Assembly (NCBI GenBank): GCA_024691465.1
Contig: JAILNO010000064.1
Coordinates: 1-16,318, forward strand
Direction: 5' to 3'
Length of the DNA stretch: 16,318 bases
Origin: Pseudobutyrivibrio sp.
GTDB lineage: Bacteria > Bacillota_A > Clostridia > Lachnospirales > Lachnospiraceae
In this document: one piece after another, positions 3,428-15,412 of the stretch
How positions within the stretch are numbered: position 1 is the first letter of the stretch
Layout: each line of letters begins with the position of its first letter
The notes under the pieces: generated by a model
The model's input: only the letters and a program-made list of their open reading frames with translations
Told to the model about the DNA's origin: nothing
Databases searched by the model: none
Made by a program: the position numbers and the translations under genes

Positions 3428-3904
3428 ATGTTATATACGAATGGCCAGGGAGAAATTATACTGTCTTGCGGAACGGAGGTGAAGAAAACGAGCACGTTTT
3501 TGACTTGGAGCATTTTGACGACGGCGTCACTTTTCGATGCCAGATCGTATAAGATTCCAAATCAACTGATCGTCCTGGGATACCTGGCAGGAATCTATAT
3601 AAACCTGTTGAGTTATGGGGTGATTGGAATTGCCTATTTCATAATAAAAGCTACGTGGCCTGTGATTGCTTTAATGCTGCTGTATATCATTAACAAATCC
3701 ATGGGTGCTGGTGATATCAAATTGTTTTCAGTGATGGCAACCATGGTGGGTACCGGATCTGTGTTAAGGACAATGGTGATATCGGTAATGCTTGCTGGCA
3801 TTACAATCGTAGTTTTGAGTTTATATGAGAGGCATTTGATAAAAAGAAATCTTCATTATTCTTTTTACATAACGGCTGCGTTTTTTTTACTGCAGTATTA
3901 CTAA
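3428..3904 (+). CDS. TadV/CpaA-type prepilin peptidase 1 (A24 aspartic protease)
   Basis: This membrane protease cleaves the leader of Flp pilin and TadE-like minor pilins. The A24 signature is visible: FDARSYKIPN with Asp37 and GAGDIK with Asp96, the two catalytic aspartates, embedded in four to five hydrophobic helices. There is no cysteine-rich methylase domain, as in TadV/CpaA. The start is uncertain. ATG 3428 gives 158 residues but lacks a good ribosome binding site. GTG 3479 is in frame, gives 141 residues and puts the first Asp at residue 20, as is usual, but the GGAGG overlaps it. The gene opens the Tad cluster; I found no convincing promoter in 3305-3427. A second peptidase of the same family lies at 10808. 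Confidence 0.85.
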   Translation: MLYTNGQGEIILSCGTEVKKTSTFLTWSILTTASLFDARSYKIPNQLIVLGYLAGIYINLLSYGVIGIAYFIIKATWPVIALMLLYIINKSMGAGDIKLFSVMATMVGTGSVLRTMVISVMLAGITIVVLSLYERHLIKRNLHYSFYITAAFFLLQYY

Positions 3905-9837: not shown

Positions 9838-10803
9838 GTGTCTCTTTCACAAAATTATCCCCCAGACAGTTTACTTGCACCAAACTGTCTAAAGTCAAAA
9901 AATTATCTTAATAAACCAAAAATATATAAGTCCCAACTTCATAAAATTATCAATATAAAAGAGATGCCTTTTTATGCCTCCTTTTTAAAAGCCAGCTATA
10001 CCATAGAAGCTGCGATTATAATGCCGCTATTTATTACACTTATGGTATTTGGAATATTCATCTTTAGAGTGTTACAGGTTCAATCAGGTATGCAGCAGTC
10101 TATTAATACTGCCAGCAGAACTATGGCAGTATCTTTAGGCAATGTGGCTAATTCAGGCGAATCTAATAAAGATGTTAATCCTGATGGTGAGGATCCATCA
10201 GTAAAGGGTGAATTATCCGAGGCGGCATTACTAGCTTCAACGATTGCTCTGGCGGGAGTTGAGGTGGCTAATAACCATGTGCCATTGGAATTTATAGATG
10301 GTGGAGCCGCGGGTATTAATTTTTTAGAAAGTGACGCAAGCGGAAATTATATAGATTTAAAAATAAGTTATGAAATGACTTTTCCAGTAGGATTGCTAGG
10401 GGATTATTCCTTTGAAGTTAATCAGAGAGCCCGCAATCGCAAATGGGTAGGATATGACAAGTCGGAAGGTTCTACAGATGGCACATATGTATATATTACG
10501 GATCATGGAGAAGTGTATCACAGGAATTATTTCTGTACCTACTTAAATCCATCGGTTCATAGAGTAGGAGAGTCCGAGGTGCCTAATCTTAGAAACAAGA
10601 GCGGTGGTAAGTATTACCAATGTAAGCGGTGTAAAGGAACGAAGGCTAATGGATTCTTATATGTGACGGATTATGGTGAAGCATATCACACTGATGTGAA
10701 TTGTACAGAGATAAAACATAACATTAAAAAAGTATTATACGAAGAAGTAAAAGATAAAATGAACCCTTGCAGCAAGTGTTCTGCTGGGGAGCATGAGGAG
10801 TGA
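9838..10803 (+). CDS. TadE-like minor pilin with long leader and two tandem Cys/His motifs
   Basis: Residues 51-64 (KASYTIEAAIIMPL) are a TadE prepilin signal: cleavage would fall after Ala52 (usually Gly), leaving Glu57 at +5 and a single hydrophobic helix. The 52-residue leader is unusually long. The exterior part ends in two copies of one module: YVYITDHGEVYH with His228, Cys233, Cys262, Cys265, and FLYVTDYGEAYH with His284, Cys289, Cys311, Cys314. Both copies keep H-x4-C and C-x2-C, so each may hold a metal ion. GTG 9838 is chosen because of the near-perfect AAGGAGGTG 7 nt upstream; ATG 9964 (residue 43) is a weaker alternative. It starts 23 bp after the DUF5702 gene. Confidence 0.82.
   Translation: MSLSQNYPPDSLLAPNCLKSKNYLNKPKIYKSQLHKIINIKEMPFYASFLKASYTIEAAIIMPLFITLMVFGIFIFRVLQVQSGMQQSINTASRTMAVSLGNVANSGESNKDVNPDGEDPSVKGELSEAALLASTIALAGVEVANNHVPLEFIDGGAAGINFLESDASGNYIDLKISYEMTFPVGLLGDYSFEVNQRARNRKWVGYDKSEGSTDGTYVYITDHGEVYHRNYFCTYLNPSVHRVGESEVPNLRNKSGGKYYQCKRCKGTKANGFLYVTDYGEAYHTDVNCTEIKHNIKKVLYEEVKDKMNPCSKCSAGEHEE
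9864..9890 (+). repeat. Perfect 9-bp inverted repeat inside the TadE leader coding sequence
   Basis: AGACAGTTT (9864-9872) and AAACTGTCT (9882-9890) flank a 9-nt loop, 26 bp after the GTG start. No T run follows, so it is not a terminator. It may act on translation of the TadE-like gene or mark a segment of former spacer DNA. Confidence 0.6.
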
Positions 10804-10807
10804 GTTA

Positions 10808-11245
10808 ATGGAAACTTTTGGTTTAATCTGCCTGTATGGAATTGCAGCGGTGGATGATATAAAGACAAGGGAAGTAAGAGTTATTGAAATAGTAATATTT
10901 GGAATGTTAGGAATTATCTTCAATATTATTTGCAAGCCATATAGCATGGTGAGTATAGCAGGTGGCGTGGGAATAGGTCTACTTATATTAATATTTAGCC
11001 TATTAACCAGAGGAAAAATCGGCGCAGGTGACGCATATATCATTATGGTAACAGGTCTATTCTTAGGTTTCATAAATACAGCTATATTGCTTTGGGTTAG
11101 TTCAATTCTTGCAGCGATATACGGCATATGCATGGTTCGTATATACGGTAGAAGCATGAGAATGGAATTACCATTCGTACCTTTTTTACTAATAGGCTAT
11201 CTACTCTTGAATATGATGAGGATATTAGGAGGTTCGATAGCATGA
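10808..11245 (+). CDS. TadV/CpaA-type prepilin peptidase 2 (A24 aspartic protease)
   Basis: A second, divergent A24 peptidase in the same cluster, 145 residues. The catalytic pair is visible: VDDIKTREV with Asp17 and IGAGDAYII with Asp75. Hydrophobic helices fill the rest, and ELPFVPFLLIGYLL near the C-terminus is usual for the family. The IPN triplet seen in peptidase 1 is replaced by VRV here. ATG 10808 is preferred over ATG 10793 because GAGGAG (10795-10800) is then 7 nt upstream. The gene begins 4 bp after the TadE-like stop and ends in an ATGA overlap with the mini TadE-like gene, suggesting it processes these adjacent minor pilins. Confidence 0.85.
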   Translation: METFGLICLYGIAAVDDIKTREVRVIEIVIFGMLGIIFNIICKPYSMVSIAGGVGIGLLILIFSLLTRGKIGAGDAYIIMVTGLFLGFINTAILLWVSSILAAIYGICMVRIYGRSMRMELPFVPFLLIGYLLLNMMRILGGSIA

Positions 11246-11448
11246 AGTTAAAGGGAAGTTATACAGTTGAGGCAGCTATAGTTATTAGCTTTTGCTTTAT
11301 ATTGTTTGGCCTTGCAGTGGGACTCAGCTATGAAATATTTAAGTTGGTAATAGAGTATGTGCAGTATGACAAGGATAATTTCGATGCAGTAAGTATGTTT
11401 AGAATAAAGGAGGGAATTACTGGCATTATTCATGCCATTAAAGATTAG
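11242..11448 (+). CDS. Small TadE-like pseudopilin
   Basis: A 68-residue protein beginning MKLKGSYTVEAAIVIS. A clean prepilin site is present: cleavage after Gly5 leaves Ser at +1 and Glu at +5, followed by one hydrophobic helix to about residue 28 and a short polar tail. Compared with TadE proteins it lacks the large exterior domain. AGGAGG (11227-11232) lies 9 nt before the ATG, and the start overlaps the peptidase stop as ATGA. It is likely a minor or initiating subunit of the pilus. Confidence 0.8.
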   Translation: MKLKGSYTVEAAIVISFCFILFGLAVGLSYEIFKLVIEYVQYDKDNFDAVSMFRIKEGITGIIHAIKD

Positions 11449-11452
11449 AGTT

Positions 11453-12565
11453 ATGGAAATATCTTATGAAAGAAAACACAATGATAGCTATATGATAATT
11501 GATGGTGAAGTGGATAGTAGTATCTATGAGGTCAGAATGATAAATGACAATGATATATCTGCTCTGCTTAAATTCACAACCTTCGCATTAGATGGAAGAG
11601 AGAAGTATAGTTATAATATCAGCCGTAAGGAGAATCTTGAAGACTTCGTTGAATCCCAGGATTTTACAATAGATGTATTAGAAAGAATTGTTATTAATAT
11701 TCAGTTAGCCCTGGATGAATTAGGGAAGTATTTAATAGATGAGGAATATATATGGCTTAGTAAGGAATCTATATTTTTAGAGAAAAGTAACGAGAATTTT
11801 AAGGTGGGATTATGCTTTTACCCTAAGAAATTCGGAAGTGTTCAGATTCAGTTTAGAGAACTAATGGAATATTTCATAACCGTTATCACAAAGGATGATA
11901 GAGATGGAGCTAGACTAGTATACGAAGCATATGACCTAACTCTTAAGGATGATTACACATTAGAAGAAATAATCGATTGTCTTCAGATGAGGGAAGAGAT
12001 AATGGAAGAGCAGGAAGAAATATATGTGGAGCACATTAGTCTGGATGATGATAGTGATGTGGTATATGAGGCCACCGAAGCAGAATATATTTCAGATATC
12101 TATGAAGATGAACCCAAAAAAGTGGGATTCATTGAAAGACTCATTGGAAGAGGAGTGGAAGGATTCTCTAGAAGAAAGCAACGTAAGGAAGAAAGTGTAG
12201 ATGAATTTGAGGATTTCGTCATTGATCCGGATTACGAGCTGGAAGAGAAGACGGTGTTATTGACTGAGAGCAAAGCTGTTGGAAAGTTAATCTATGACGG
12301 AAATAGTAATGAGGATGACTTTATAATTAACAAAGACATATTTAGGATTGGTTCGTCCAAGAATAACGATGCCATACTTCACGCTAAGACTGTCAGTGGT
12401 AGTCACGCCAAGATAGTGAAGGAGGGAGATGATTACTACCTTACAGATACCAATAGCCTAAATGGCAGTTTTGTTAATAGCATGCCTCTTCCTTATCGCA
12501 AGCCATATCTTCTTAAGCCTATGGACATAATTAGGTTTGCAAGTGAATCGTATGTGTTTATGTAG
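11453..12565 (+). CDS. FHA-domain protein with DUF6382-like N-terminus
   Basis: A soluble protein of 370 residues that ends the pilus cluster. The N-terminal 190 residues (MEISYERKHNDSYMIIDGE onward) resemble DUF6382, which in clostridia is coupled to FHA domains in Tad loci. An acidic linker (about 190-275) follows, interrupted by a basic helix with GFIERLIGRG. The C-terminal FHA domain (about 285-370) has FRIGSSKNNDAIL, SGSHAKI (Ser315, His318) and DTNSLNGSFVN (Asn337). FHA domains bind phosphothreonine; the usual GR arginine is Ser301 here, which may weaken binding. ATG 11453 lies 4 bp after the previous stop and fits the family start; ATG 11432 would add seven residues and overlap the previous gene. 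Confidence 0.85.
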   Translation: MEISYERKHNDSYMIIDGEVDSSIYEVRMINDNDISALLKFTTFALDGREKYSYNISRKENLEDFVESQDFTIDVLERIVINIQLALDELGKYLIDEEYIWLSKESIFLEKSNENFKVGLCFYPKKFGSVQIQFRELMEYFITVITKDDRDGARLVYEAYDLTLKDDYTLEEIIDCLQMREEIMEEQEEIYVEHISLDDDSDVVYEATEAEYISDIYEDEPKKVGFIERLIGRGVEGFSRRKQRKEESVDEFEDFVIDPDYELEEKTVLLTESKAVGKLIYDGNSNEDDFIINKDIFRIGSSKNNDAILHAKTVSGSHAKIVKEGDDYYLTDTNSLNGSFVNSMPLPYRKPYLLKPMDIIRFASESYVFM

Positions 12566-12569
12566 ATGA

Positions 12570-12758
12570 TACTAGTCGCAGCGGCTCAATCCTTATTCAT
12601 AATGGGAGTCTTTCAGACTCCTTTTTCGTTGCTTTCGCAACTAACATTATTCATAAGGTTTGAGTCACTCATTCTTCGTTATTAAGTAGTATTAATACTT
12701 CTTTTACAAGCAAGCTTGACAAGAAGTTATTAATTCAACTTAGTAACTGCGACTAGTA
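12570..12758. repeat. Nested inverted-repeat element able to form a three-way junction
   Basis: The outer arms are a perfect 12-bp inverted repeat: TACTAGTCGCAG (12570-12581) and CTGCGACTAGTA (12747-12758). Inside, arm A pairs 12585-12604 with 12645-12664 (17 of 20 positions) and encloses the terminator and a small GTTGC-TTTC-GCAAC hairpin (12628-12641). Arm B pairs 12678-12703 with 12721-12747 with two mismatches, one bulge and one G-U, around a CAAG tip. It starts 5 bp after the FHA stop codon. No T-box, tRNA or known riboswitch signature was seen. It could be a MITE-like insertion or a structured RNA. Confidence 0.75.
12604..12627 (+). terminator. Rho-independent terminator of the Tad operon
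   Basis: GGAGTCT (12605-12611) and AGACTCC (12615-12621) form a 7-bp stem with a 3-nt loop, followed by TTTTT at 12622-12626. It lies 40 bp after the FHA stop codon, at the top of arm A of the larger inverted-repeat element. Confidence 0.85.
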
Positions 12759-12773
12759 ACATATATTATTACA

Positions 12774-12802
12774 TTGTGAAGTGTCTTCTTTTTTGTTAAA
12801 AT
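12774..12802 (+). promoter_or_regulatory. Sigma-A promoter of secA with extended -10
   Basis: TTGTGA (12774-12779), a 17-nt spacer and TAAAAT (12797-12802), with TG at 12794-12795 in the extended -10 place. Transcription would start near 12809, giving a leader of about 36 nt. AGGAG at 12833-12837, 7 nt before the ATG, is the ribosome binding site. Confidence 0.75.
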
Positions 12803-12844: not shown

Positions 12845-15412
12845 ATGAGCATTATCGATAAAGTATTTGGAACACATTCTCAGCGAGAGCTTAAGCGTAT
12901 TAAGCCTATCGCAGATAAGATTGAATCATATAGATCTGCTATGCAGGCTCTTTCTGATGAGGAACTTCGTGGTAAGACTACCGAATTTAAGGAGAGACTT
13001 GCTAAGGGAGAGACACTTGATGATCTTCTTCCTGAGGCATATGCAGTAGTTAGAGAAGCTGGTAAGAGAGCTCTTGGAATGGAGCACTTCAGAGTACAAC
13101 TTATTGGTGGTATCATTCTTCACCAGGGTCGTATCGCTGAGATGCGTACAGGTGAAGGTAAGACACTTGTTTCTACACTTCCAGCATATCTTAATGCACT
13201 TGAGGGCAAGGGAGTTCATATCGTAACAGTCAATGATTACCTTGCTAAGCGTGATGCTGAGTGGATGGGTGAGGTTCATAGATTCTTAGGACTTACAGTT
13301 GGTGTAGTTCTTAATGATATGACTAAGGAGGAACGTCAGGCAGCTTATAACTGTGATATTACTTATATCACTAACAATGAGCTAGGTTTTGATTACCTCC
13401 GTGACAATATGTGTGTATATGAGAAGGATTTAGTACAGCGTGGTCTTCACTACTGTATCATCGATGAGGTGGATTCAGTACTTATTGATGAGGCTCGTAC
13501 TCCTCTTATTATTTCAGGTCAGTCCAGCAAGTCTACTAAGCTCTATGAGCTTTGTGATGTGCTTGCTCGTCAGCTTAAGCGTGGTGAGGATCTTCCAGAA
13601 TTCTCTAAGATGGATGCAATCATGGGCGTTGAGCGTAATGAGACAGGTGATTTTATCGTAGATGAGAAGGATAAGGTAGTTAATCTTACTGCACAGGGTG
13701 TTGAGAAGGTTGAGCAGTTCTTCCATATCGATAACTTAGCAGATCCAGAGAATCTTGAGATTCAGCATAATGTTATACTTGCACTTCGTGCTCATAACCT
13801 TATGTTCAAGGATCAGGATTATGTAGTTTCAGATAATCAGGTTATGATTGTCGATTCATTTACAGGTCGTATTATGCCAGGTCGTAGATACTCTGACGGA
13901 TTACATCAGGCTATTGAGGCTAAGGAGCATGTTGAGGTTAAGCGCGAGTCTATGACTCTTGCTAATATCACATTCCAGAACTTCTTCAACAAGTATGACA
14001 AGAAGGCTGGTATGACAGGTACAGCTCTTACTGAGGAGCAGGAGTTCCGTGATATATATGGAATGGATGTAGTAGAGGTTCCTACTAATAATCCTGTTCA
14101 GCGTATCGATCATGATGATGCGGTTTACAAGACCAAGCAGGAGAAATACAAGGCTGTTGTTGAGGAAGTTAAGAAGGCTCACGAAAAGGGACAGCCAGTA
14201 CTTGTTGGTACAATAGATATTGATATTTCAGAGTTAGTTTCTAAGATGCTTCGCCGTGAGGGCATTGAGCATAATGTACTTAATGCTAAGTATCATGAGA
14301 AGGAAGCTGAGATAGTTGCTGAGGCTGGTAAGCATGGTGCTGTTACCATCGCTACTAATATGGCCGGCCGTGGTACAGATATTAAGCTTGACGAGGAGGC
14401 TCGTGCAGCAGGTGGTCTTAAGATTATCGGTACAGAGCGTCACGAGTCACGTCGTATAGATAATCAGTTGAGAGGTCGTTCAGGTCGTCAGGGTGATGTG
14501 GGTGAGTCACAGTTCTTTATCTCACTCGAGGATGATCTTATGAGACTCTTCGGTTCTGAGAGACTTATTAGCATGTTTAATGCTCTCGGAGTACCAGAGG
14601 GTGAGCAGATTAAGCATAAGATGCTTTCTGATGCAATCGAAAAGGCGCAGAAGAAGATAGAGGAGAATAACTTCTCAGCTCGTAAGAATCTGCTTGATTA
14701 TGATCAGGTTATGAATGAGCAGAGAGAGCTTATCTACAAGCAGCGTCGTAGAGTTCTCATGGGCGAGGATATGCATGAGCAGATTATCGGCATGATTGAG
14801 GACAAGGTAGACGAGTGCATAGAGAAGACTATTCCTGATGATGTAGAGAAGGAACTCTGGGAGCTTAAGGAACTTAATCATATCCTTTGCCCAGTTATTC
14901 CAGTGCCAGTCATGACACAGCTTTCTATTGGAAACATTAAGACTAAGAAGGAACTTAAAGAGAAGCTCACTGAGATTGCTCTTAAGATGTACGCAGATAA
15001 GGAAAAGGAATTCGACCAGCCAGAGCAGTTTAGAGAGGTTGAGAGAGTTATTCTTCTCCGTGTTATCGACCGCAAGTGGATGGAAGAGATTGACGATATG
15101 GAACAGCTTCGTCAGGGTATACGCTTACAGGCATACGGTAATCGTAACCCAGTTGATGAGTACAAGGCAGCCAGCTACGATATGCTTGATGCCATGAATG
15201 CAGCTATTATCAATGACACTCTTACCATGCTATACAGAATCCGCATCGAGAAGAAGGTAGAGCGTGAGGAAGTTGCGAAGGTAACAGGAACCAATAAGGA
15301 CGAATCTGCAGGTAAGGCACCACAGAAGCGCAAGGAGAAGAAGGTATTCCCTAATGATCCATGTCCATGTGGCTCAGGACTGAAGTATAAACAGTGTTGC
15401 GGAAGGAAGTAA
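12845..15412 (+). CDS. secA: SecA, preprotein translocase ATPase
   Basis: SecA is the motor that pushes unfolded preproteins through SecYEG. The 855-residue protein is complete. Walker A is TGEGKT (residues 102-107), the DEAD-like box DEVD at 207-210, TGTA and [11 protein letters not shown] motifs follow, and GRSGRQGD at 544-551 is motif VI. The C-terminus has the zinc site [13 protein letters not shown] (Cys840, Cys842, Cys851, Cys852), which binds SecB-like partners or phospholipid. Length is near that of Bacillus SecA (841). Codons such as CTT, GCT and CGT dominate, unlike the AGA/TTA/CTA-rich pilus genes upstream, the mark of a highly expressed gene. It has its own promoter and is not part of the Tad operon. 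The stop lies inside a strong hairpin. Confidence 0.99.

What the first reader, a model, noticed from the sequence alone, without database searches (positions are those of the whole stretch)
12570..12758. Nested inverted repeats after the Tad operon fold into a three-way junction holding the terminator
Three independent pairings share one 189-bp segment: a perfect 12-bp outer stem, a 17/20 inner arm with a terminator at its tip, and a long arm B. Pairing at this scale is far beyond chance for spacer DNA. The terminator would stop transcription before the structure completes, which suggests either a DNA element (MITE-like, with 12-bp ends) or an RNA made only in read-through transcripts reaching secA. 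No known leader class matched.
Basis: partly seen in the sequence, partly recalled or inferred. Interest (0 to 1): 0.72.

Follow-up and report, generated by a model that had tools for sequence, protein, structure and literature searches.

The report
Folded miniature transposon after Tad operon
The strange folded segment is one old copy of a small gene-less jumping DNA whose two arms keep matching each other through evolution as DNA rather than as RNA, and it appears related to two catalogued "RNA" families whose function is unknown.

Summary
The fold is real (RNA z -11, 0 of 200 shuffles as stable). It is a 193-bp element, 12568-12760, with 14-bp terminal inverted repeats (family consensus GTTACTATTCACAG). 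Six of six Pseudobutyrivibrio relatives lack it at this locus, but copies are dispersed: 20 of 29 genus genomes by blastn, 33 of 250 Lachnospiraceae by covariance model. Copies show 8-bp target duplications (z 6.4; 5 of 40 exact, all outside the genus): a MITE. IS4-family elements with the same tips are candidate mobilisers. The body is not junk: 47 of 68 pairs show two-sided changes. G-U and A-C cells are equally rare (25 vs 30), while RNase P RNA of the genus gives 214 vs 2; the pairing looks maintained as DNA, not RNA. On the minus strand it distantly resembles Rfam Clostridiales-1, and the same tips bound ~600-bp TwoAYGGAY palindromes; both are listed as probable RNAs. The terminator is private to this copy (1 of 30). 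Why a MITE keeps such a fold is unproven: end synapsis as folded DNA, or arm homogenisation.

The parts
12568..12760 (+). whole element (193 bp), orientation as in model R1
   Evidence: cmsearch R1 181 bits over positions 1-193 of 193 (the window copy is one of the 30 rows of the model); ends set by 14-bp inverted repeats shared by dispersed copies
12568..12581 (+). left terminal inverted repeat (GATACTAGTCGCAG), 5' half of stem P1
   Evidence: family consensus GTTACTATTCACAG; 3 differences in this copy
12747..12760 (-). right terminal inverted repeat, 3' half of P1
   Evidence: 2 differences from consensus, both matched in the left repeat (G-C pairs at columns 8/190 and 11/187)
12583..12666 (+). 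arm P2, with a conserved TC/TC internal loop (12597-12598/12651-12652; GA/GA on the minus strand) and two hairpins at its tip
   Evidence: fold; pair counts (helix 2); internal loop UC/UC in 28 of 30
12604..12622 (+). hairpin P2a, terminator-like in this copy only
   Evidence: U-rich tail in 1 of 30 copies
12628..12641 (+). hairpin P2b (GTTGC/GCAAC)
   Evidence: helix 4, 4 of 5 pairs with two-sided changes
   Evidence: fold; helices 6-8: 21 of 23 pairs with two-sided changes
12560..12567 (.). left flank 8-mer (ATGTAGAT), place of the former target duplication, decayed
   Evidence: 4 of 8 match to 12761-12768 by reading the letters; 8-bp duplications in other copies
12761..12768 (.). right flank 8-mer (ATATATTA), decayed target duplication
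   Evidence: letters; for other copies
11432..12565 (+). DUF6382-FHA protein gene upstream; its stop codon lies 2 nt before the element
12845..15412 (+). secA downstream

Best explanation
[quoted passage not shown] Shown by computation: 14-bp terminal repeats, 8-bp target duplications in other, younger copies, dispersed copies in both orientations, unoccupied orthologous sites, and a body whose pairing is preserved while its bases change, without the G-U bias of an RNA. Inferred: it is moved in trans by a DDE transposase, most likely of the IS4-family elements that carry the same 14-bp tips; and the body folds as single-stranded or extruded DNA (probably the minus strand, with GNA triloop, tandem GA and mostly a CTTG tip), which pairs the two ends as stem P1 and so presents them together to the transposase. 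In this copy hairpin P2a has by chance gained a U-rich tail and may now end transcription of the Tad operon (not tested).
For: TIRs and copies: (exact 14-mer in 22 of 29 genus genomes, reversed control in 0 of 29). TSD: z 6.4 at n=8 among 40 units of 180-205 bp, 5 exact; an earlier, overlapping hand-made list of 49 units gave z 6.3. Unoccupied sites. DNA-level pairing: (element GU 25, AC 30; RNase P GU 214, AC 2), repeated on 28 copies fetched by the family-wide search, outside the genus set (GU 37, AC 46, WC 1521). Covariation: (0 of 500 shuffles reach any of five measures; 228 two-sided cells vs 33-44 in slid controls). Two-sided changes between orthologous copies at the flgG-flgJ slot. IS4-family unit with the same tips at both ends and a 7/8 TSD: L346 1574-3321. 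GCGAAGC on the minus strand 17 times in 14 of 28 copies, 0.17 expected in shuffles, 0 on the plus strand.
Against: Folding the minus strand gives GU 54 vs AC 25, a mild lean that an RNA of that strand could leave (RNase P: 214 vs 2). 85 of 2027 cells are not paired (from the 95.8%). All five exact 8-bp duplications of the ~193-bp class lie outside the genus; within it the best is 7/8 (L149). The named IS1675, 37% identical to the L346 transposase, lacks the 14-bp tip: it starts at CAATGTCATT with a 10-bp duplication, or at CCAATG with an 8-bp one, so the tip may be target rather than end of the IS4 units. IS4 units with the tip were seen at both ends only in G029 (TSD 4/8; its second copy has a defective right end) and G096; G026 holds fragments and G268 an IS-like end without a recognisable transposase. 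No transposition was observed. Decayed copies exist, so the fold is not kept everywhere.
Confidence: 0.72

Rival explanations
1. The arms stay complementary by a neutral process: template switching or hairpin-mediated repair during replication copies one arm onto the other, so the covariation needs no selection. The element is a plain MITE.
For: Two-sided changes outnumber one-sided ones (228 vs 17 cells by my sum of the per-pair rows, besides about 85 unpaired cells), G-U and A-C intermediates are equally rare, and two-sided changes separate orthologous copies.
Against: Homogenisation should also erase internal loops, yet the UC/UC loop is kept in 28 of 30 and the UNC triloop in 29 of 30; the architecture recurs across the family. 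The tip is less fixed (CAAG in 20 of 30).
Confidence: 0.3
2. A functional RNA: a Clostridiales-1-like small RNA read from the minus strand, spread by transposition.
For: 10 of 15 loci give RF01699 hits at the element, all on the minus strand, though each is weak (20-29 bits, E 0.015-4.3); model R1 finds 3 of 8 RF01699 loci on the opposite strand at E 1.7e-9 to 1.2e-4; tip and tandem GA would also suit RNA; minus-strand GU 54 vs AC 25. For TwoAYGGAY a CsrA-binding sRNA role has been proposed (PMC4333381, passages).
Against: GU/AC near parity against 214:2 in RNase P; orientation to genes 12 sense, 11 antisense, 8 divergent, 2 unclassified of 33. Own promoter and terminator were not tested.
Confidence: 0.12
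3. A bidirectional terminator or mRNA 3'-end element kept for its host, folding as RNA on both strands.
For: Symmetric GU/AC; several copies lie just after terminator-like hairpins (seen by eye; not counted against chance); this copy has a terminator-like hairpin.
Against: Fewer than 5 U in the tail in 29 of 30 copies; 0 of 31 classifiable copies lie between convergent genes and 8 between divergent ones (simple ORF caller); 8-bp TSDs.
Confidence: 0.06
4. A chance palindrome, or a REPIN-like element moved by a RAYT (Y1) transposase.
For: REPINs are symmetric hairpins with compensatory changes (PMC3116915, passages). Y1 genes occur in tip-rich G268, G141 and G199, and 2 of 8 of the family-wide Y1 loci have a pair of tip-like sequences (2-3 mismatches) nearby (L365, L371; not tested against chance).
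Against: Chance: z -11 and homologues. RAYT: PF01797 in 10 of 29 genus genomes and 4 of 13 tip-bearing family genomes, not found in copy-rich G014, G024, G175, G085, G096; a TSD is present.
Confidence: 0.06

Closest known systems
Bacterial MITEs (review PMC10969869, passages read, e.g. QMITE2 of Coxiella with 7-9 bp DRs)
   Same: Short, non-coding, AT-rich, TIR-bounded, 8-bp target duplications, dispersed mostly between genes, stable fold; presumed mobilisation in trans by an IS.
   Different: Body is a conserved branched structure with two-sided changes in 47 of 68 pairs and conserved loops; several unlike palindromic bodies share the 14-bp tip.
REPINs / RAYT-mobilised palindromes (PMC3116915, passages read)
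   Same: Symmetric non-autonomous mobile DNA predicted to fold as a hairpin, compensatory changes common.
   Different: 193 bp and branched, 8-bp TSDs, no consistent link with Y1 transposases.
Rfam RF01699 Clostridiales-1 RNA (PMC2864571, passages read)
   Same: Long arm with GCUUGC tip, tandem-GA internal loop, junction; copies L188 and L190 carry the related tip GTTTCTATTCAG.
   Different: Hits of element copies stay at 20-29 bits against a cut-off of 48; opposite strand; copies L188-L190 fold with one hairpin at the tip of the second arm, the present element with two.
Rfam RF01731 TwoAYGGAY RNA
   Same: Lies at the centre of ~600-bp palindromes bounded by the same or nearly the same tip; one has an exact 8-bp TSD (L194).
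   Different: Body not alike in sequence; G011, with 49 copies, has no exact tip.
IS4 family (NF033592; subgroups in PMC2266710, passages read)
   Same: Units in G029 and G096 are tipped with GTTACTATTCACAG; IS4 subgroups are reported with 7-13 bp duplications.
   Different: The named relative IS1675 lacks the tip; I recognised no IS-derived sequence in the element beyond the tip.

Membership tests
MITE | short, non-coding, terminal inverted repeats | tested here: met
   193 bp, 14-bp TIRs; no ORF of >=80 aa inside 12568-12760
MITE | target-site duplication | tested here: met
   8 bp in the family: z 6.4, 5 of 40 exact; decayed in the window copy
MITE | multiple dispersed copies and unoccupied sites | tested here: met
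MITE | autonomous partner with the same ends | tested here: inconclusive
   IS4-family units with the tip at both ends in G029 and G096, fragments in G026, an IS-like end in G268; IS1675 lacks the tip
MITE | mobility in trans | not testable with these tools
   needs a transposition assay
RF01699 Clostridiales-1 | score at or above 48 bits | tested here: not met
   window no hit at gathering score; 10 of 15 loci hit at 20-29 bits, none at the cut-off; at the element 0 of 20 family-wide loci reach it
functional RNA | G-U favoured over A-C in pairs on the functional strand | tested here: not met
   25 vs 30 on the plus strand; 54 vs 25 when the minus strand is folded (mild lean); RNase P 214 vs 2
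REPIN | linked RAYT/Y1 transposase | tested here: inconclusive
   Y1 in 10 of 29 and 4 of 13 genomes without match to copy number; 2 of 8 family-wide Y1 loci near an inward tip-like pair, 0 such pairs in 18 genus loci
intrinsic terminator | GC stem plus U-tract | tested here: inconclusive
   present in this copy only; transcription not measured

The most novel reading that the evidence does not exclude
A class of MITEs in Lachnospiraceae whose bodies are selected as folded DNA: the fold joins the two transposon ends and is part of the transposition substrate. Rfam's Clostridiales-1 and TwoAYGGAY 'RNAs' would then be bodies of such elements rather than RNAs, and equality of G-U and A-C pairs would be a general test to tell structured DNA from structured RNA in motif catalogues.
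Probability: 0.45. Interest if true: 0.78.

Novelty: new variant of a known kind. Interest (0 to 1): 0.64.

Why it matters
Covariation is the usual argument that a motif is a functional RNA. Here a strongly covarying structure (0 of 500 shuffles) sits on a transposon and lacks the strand bias that RNase P RNA of the same genus shows. If right, two published RNA families of unknown function would need re-filing as mobile DNA, and the GU:AC ratio gives a cheap check for others. It also poses a testable question: why a MITE keeps a branched fold, and whether that fold brings the ends together for the transposase.

Tried and rejected
IS4 as master: first considered, then rejected (related IS begin at CAATGTCATT beside unlike hairpins), then reinstated as a candidate after the 8-bp duplication outside the tips of the G096 unit; IS1675 keeps it open. 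Target duplications: none seen by eye, found at 8 bp by the shuffled-pair test. RAYT/Y1 partner: no consistent link; the later check found tip-like pairs near 2 of 8 family-wide Y1 loci, so I moved this from 'not met' to 'inconclusive' and its odds from 0.04 to 0.06. Recurrent gene near copies: the listed clusters are orthologous neighbourhoods and common families, no shared transposase among those shown. Phage and plasmid collections: no match to the element at E<=1; viral contigs: no exact two-ended match, no relative of the neighbouring protein. Terminator as a family trait: rejected. Minis of <=60 bp: no TSD signal (11 units).

Rows dropped before counts: the 30-copy alignment left out tandem partial copies, remnants and L037 (= L007), L051, L060; A3 takes L007 in place of L061. 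The RNase P control used 20 of 29 listed loci, leaving out 7 longer RNAs and 2 fragments. One search used 36 genus and 28 other rows of 89; the other 25 are matches on the opposite strand of copies already counted. One search made 81 units with unlike flanks; 79 fell into the size classes tested, 2 did not. In one search the 'other sizes' class also had z 2.0 at n=7. Copy counts include fragments; the single G008 hit (E 0.0056) may be chance. In one search the reversed control has one match in 10 of 250 genomes, so lone matches of the 14-mer may be chance.

Full report
Setting. The window encodes a flagellin, a Tad/Flp-type cluster, a DUF6382-FHA protein and SecA ('flagellin' and 'Tad' rest partly on recall). 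The six relatives of the FHA protein found in genome contigs are all Pseudobutyrivibrio, best 63% in P. ruminis DSM 9787, so the host is Pseudobutyrivibrio-like. No whole genome is held for the window.

Observation. The three pairings exist and fold into a branched structure far more stable than shuffles. Comparison with copies sets the unit at 12568-12760, 193 bp. In the six relatives the gap from the FHA stop codon to secA is 100-178 nt against 279 nt here, with no blastn match to the element beyond 9-10-nt words. In L001 the alignment stops at window 12564 and resumes at 12774.

A dispersed family. Blastn in the six relatives' genomes found two clear homologues elsewhere (77% and 71%), both between flgG- and flgJ-like genes and antisense to them (gene names by recall). 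In the genus 20 of 29 genomes have a blastn match at E<=0.01. Most full-length copies share GTTACTATTCACAG...CTGTGAATAGTAAC; the exact 14-mer occurs in 22 of 29 genomes, its reversed control in 0. A covariance model built from 30 copies finds matches at E<=1e-4 in 33 of 250 Lachnospiraceae genomes, G002 and G022 of the genus among them, with up to 10 copies each (stricter filters). The exact 14-mer occurs in 33 of 250 (reversed control: one match in each of 10), with 243 ends in G268.

It is a transposon. Left and right flanks of copies agree at a duplication length of 8: 40 units of 180-205 bp, identity 0.475 vs 0.315 shuffled, z 6.4, five exact (L297, L308, L309, L350, L363, all outside the genus), other lengths from 4 to 12 within z 1.6; 12 units of 400-720 bp, z 3.8, one exact (L194, in the genus); 13 of other sizes, z 5.3 (and z 2.0 at 7); 11 minis, no signal. 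At one orthologous slot behind a terminator-like hairpin I read 17 genomes: G014 has one element, G024 two in tandem, G017 and G011 a TwoAYGGAY-type palindrome, G002 another palindrome; G006, G007, G009, G013, G021, G025 and G028 look empty, G003 and G008 hold a short tip-like remnant, and G012, G022 and G029 were not resolved. Relative to flanking ORFs from a simple caller, 33 copies stand 12 sense, 11 antisense, 8 divergent, 0 convergent, 2 unclassified. IS4-family units with the 14-mer at both ends occur in G029 and G096, fragments in G026, and an IS-like end without a recognisable transposase in G268. The G029 and G096 transposases are only 37% identical; the G096 unit has a 7/8 duplication outside the tips, the G029 unit 4/8. 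IS1675, a named relative, lacks the tip; GAGTATACCC stands on both sides of CAATG ends, or AGTATACC if the ends are taken as CCAATG. Whether the tip belongs to these IS or is their target is open.

The body is a structure kept at the DNA level. On 30 copies 95.8% of 2027 cells pair, 47 of 68 pairs show changes on both sides, and 0 of 500 shuffles reach any of the five measures; slid controls give 34-43% paired. Relatedness inflates the shuffle test, but the slid control shares it. Non-Watson-Crick cells are GU 25 and AC 30 (other mismatches 82), whereas the same procedure on RNase P RNA of 20 genomes of the genus gives GU 214 and AC 2. RNAalifold favours G-U over A-C, so its bias runs against this result. 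On 28 copies from the family-wide search (alignment fitted to the model) GU 37, AC 46, WC 1521, other 81, and 67 of 68 pairs have more than one Watson-Crick type. Against it: folding the complementary strand gives GU 54, AC 25; RNase P on its wrong strand gives 82 and 46. At the flgG-flgJ slot three species compared pairwise show 10, 5 and 12 two-sided Watson-Crick changes against 7, 2 and 5 one-sided and 1, 0 and 1 two-sided breaking ones; L040/L045 show 2 against 1; three close pairs show none against 0, 2 and 1. So paired changes appear after insertion, unless copies were exchanged by gene conversion. Loops read on the minus strand as GNA triloop (29 of 30), GA/GA internal loop (28 of 30) and CTTG tip (20 of 30); GCGAAGC, recalled as a hyperstable DNA mini-hairpin (papers seen only in a listing), occurs there 17 times in 14 of 28 family-wide copies.

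Relation to Rfam. At gathering scores the window has no hit. With relaxed thresholds 10 of 15 loci hit RF01699 at the element at 20-29 bits (cut-off 48; E 0.015-4.3), always on the minus strand. In reverse, R1 finds 3 of 8 RF01699 loci on the opposite strand (45.8, 37.8, 26.1 bits), and L188 and L190 carry GTTTCTATTCAG. At the element 0 of 20 family-wide loci reach RF01699's cut-off. So it is a relative in design, not a member. Of nine tip-bearing loci with long bodies (two seen at one end only), seven reach RF01731 TwoAYGGAY above cut-off; that family is in 27 of 29 genus genomes with up to 49 copies, and its GU/AC is 15/8 on the Rfam strand, 35/16 on the other. PMC2864571 lists both families as probable RNA, not cis-regulatory (passages); PMC4333381 proposes that TwoAYGGAY binds CsrA (passages), and PMC11661157 treats it as an RNA of unknown function (passages). 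In ten searches of the open-licence library (listings capped) I saw no paper tying either family to a transposon; I opened passages of seven papers only, and most subscription journals are not held.

Function of this copy. Two nucleotides after a stop codon, with decayed target repeats and 3 and 2 departures from the tip consensus, it is an old insertion. P2a followed by UUUUUCGU is terminator-like; the other 29 copies have 1-4 U in that stretch. It may end the Tad operon transcript; that is not tested.

Judgement. MITE: near certain on sequence grounds. DNA rather than RNA: likely. Why the fold is kept: undecided between end synapsis by folded DNA and arm homogenisation; the conserved internal loops favour the first.

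Noticed in passing
L102, L106, L107, L131, L098, L194 (genus loci): ~580-630 bp imperfect palindromes bounded by the same or nearly the same 14-bp tip, with Rfam TwoAYGGAY inside; L194 has an exact 8-bp target duplication.
   Followed up: partly
L111 2294-4003; L346 1574-3321: IS4-family elements tipped with GTTACTATTCAC(A/G)G at both ends in two genomes; transposases only 37% identical.
   Followed up: partly
L160, L161, L168, L172, L173, L176: Related IS4-family IS starting about CAATGTCATTAAGTTAAG, beside various small hairpins, as if it targets terminators.
   Followed up: partly
L283-L287, L262, L264: RNase P RNA matches of 374-466 nt against about 345 in most of the genus; the extra stretch was not examined.
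   Followed up: no
G014:C29 53401-53911 (L273, L189): A Clostridiales-1 copy begins 5 nt after the RNase P RNA match.
   Followed up: no
L355, L356 (G175): 31-bp palindromes made of the two tips with a 3-nt loop, several in this genome, next to a second A/T-rich hairpin.
   Followed up: partly
G268 (L347-L354): 243 exact tips in a 2.8-Mb genome, many of those listed near contig ends: perhaps an element now amplifying.
   Followed up: partly
L365 (G268), L371 (G199): Y1 (PF01797) genes with a tip-like palindrome (2-3 mismatches) within the fetched flank; not tested against chance.
   Followed up: partly
L007 2500-2600, L008 2505-2600: A second, different inverted repeat between the neighbouring flagellar genes, near the element's slot (seen by eye).
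   Followed up: no
window 3428-3904 and 10793-11245: Two prepilin-peptidase (Peptidase_A24) genes in one Tad-type cluster.
   Followed up: no
L295 2640-2792: A full-scoring Clostridiales-1 copy (128.6 bits) about 1 kb from an element of the present family.
   Followed up: no
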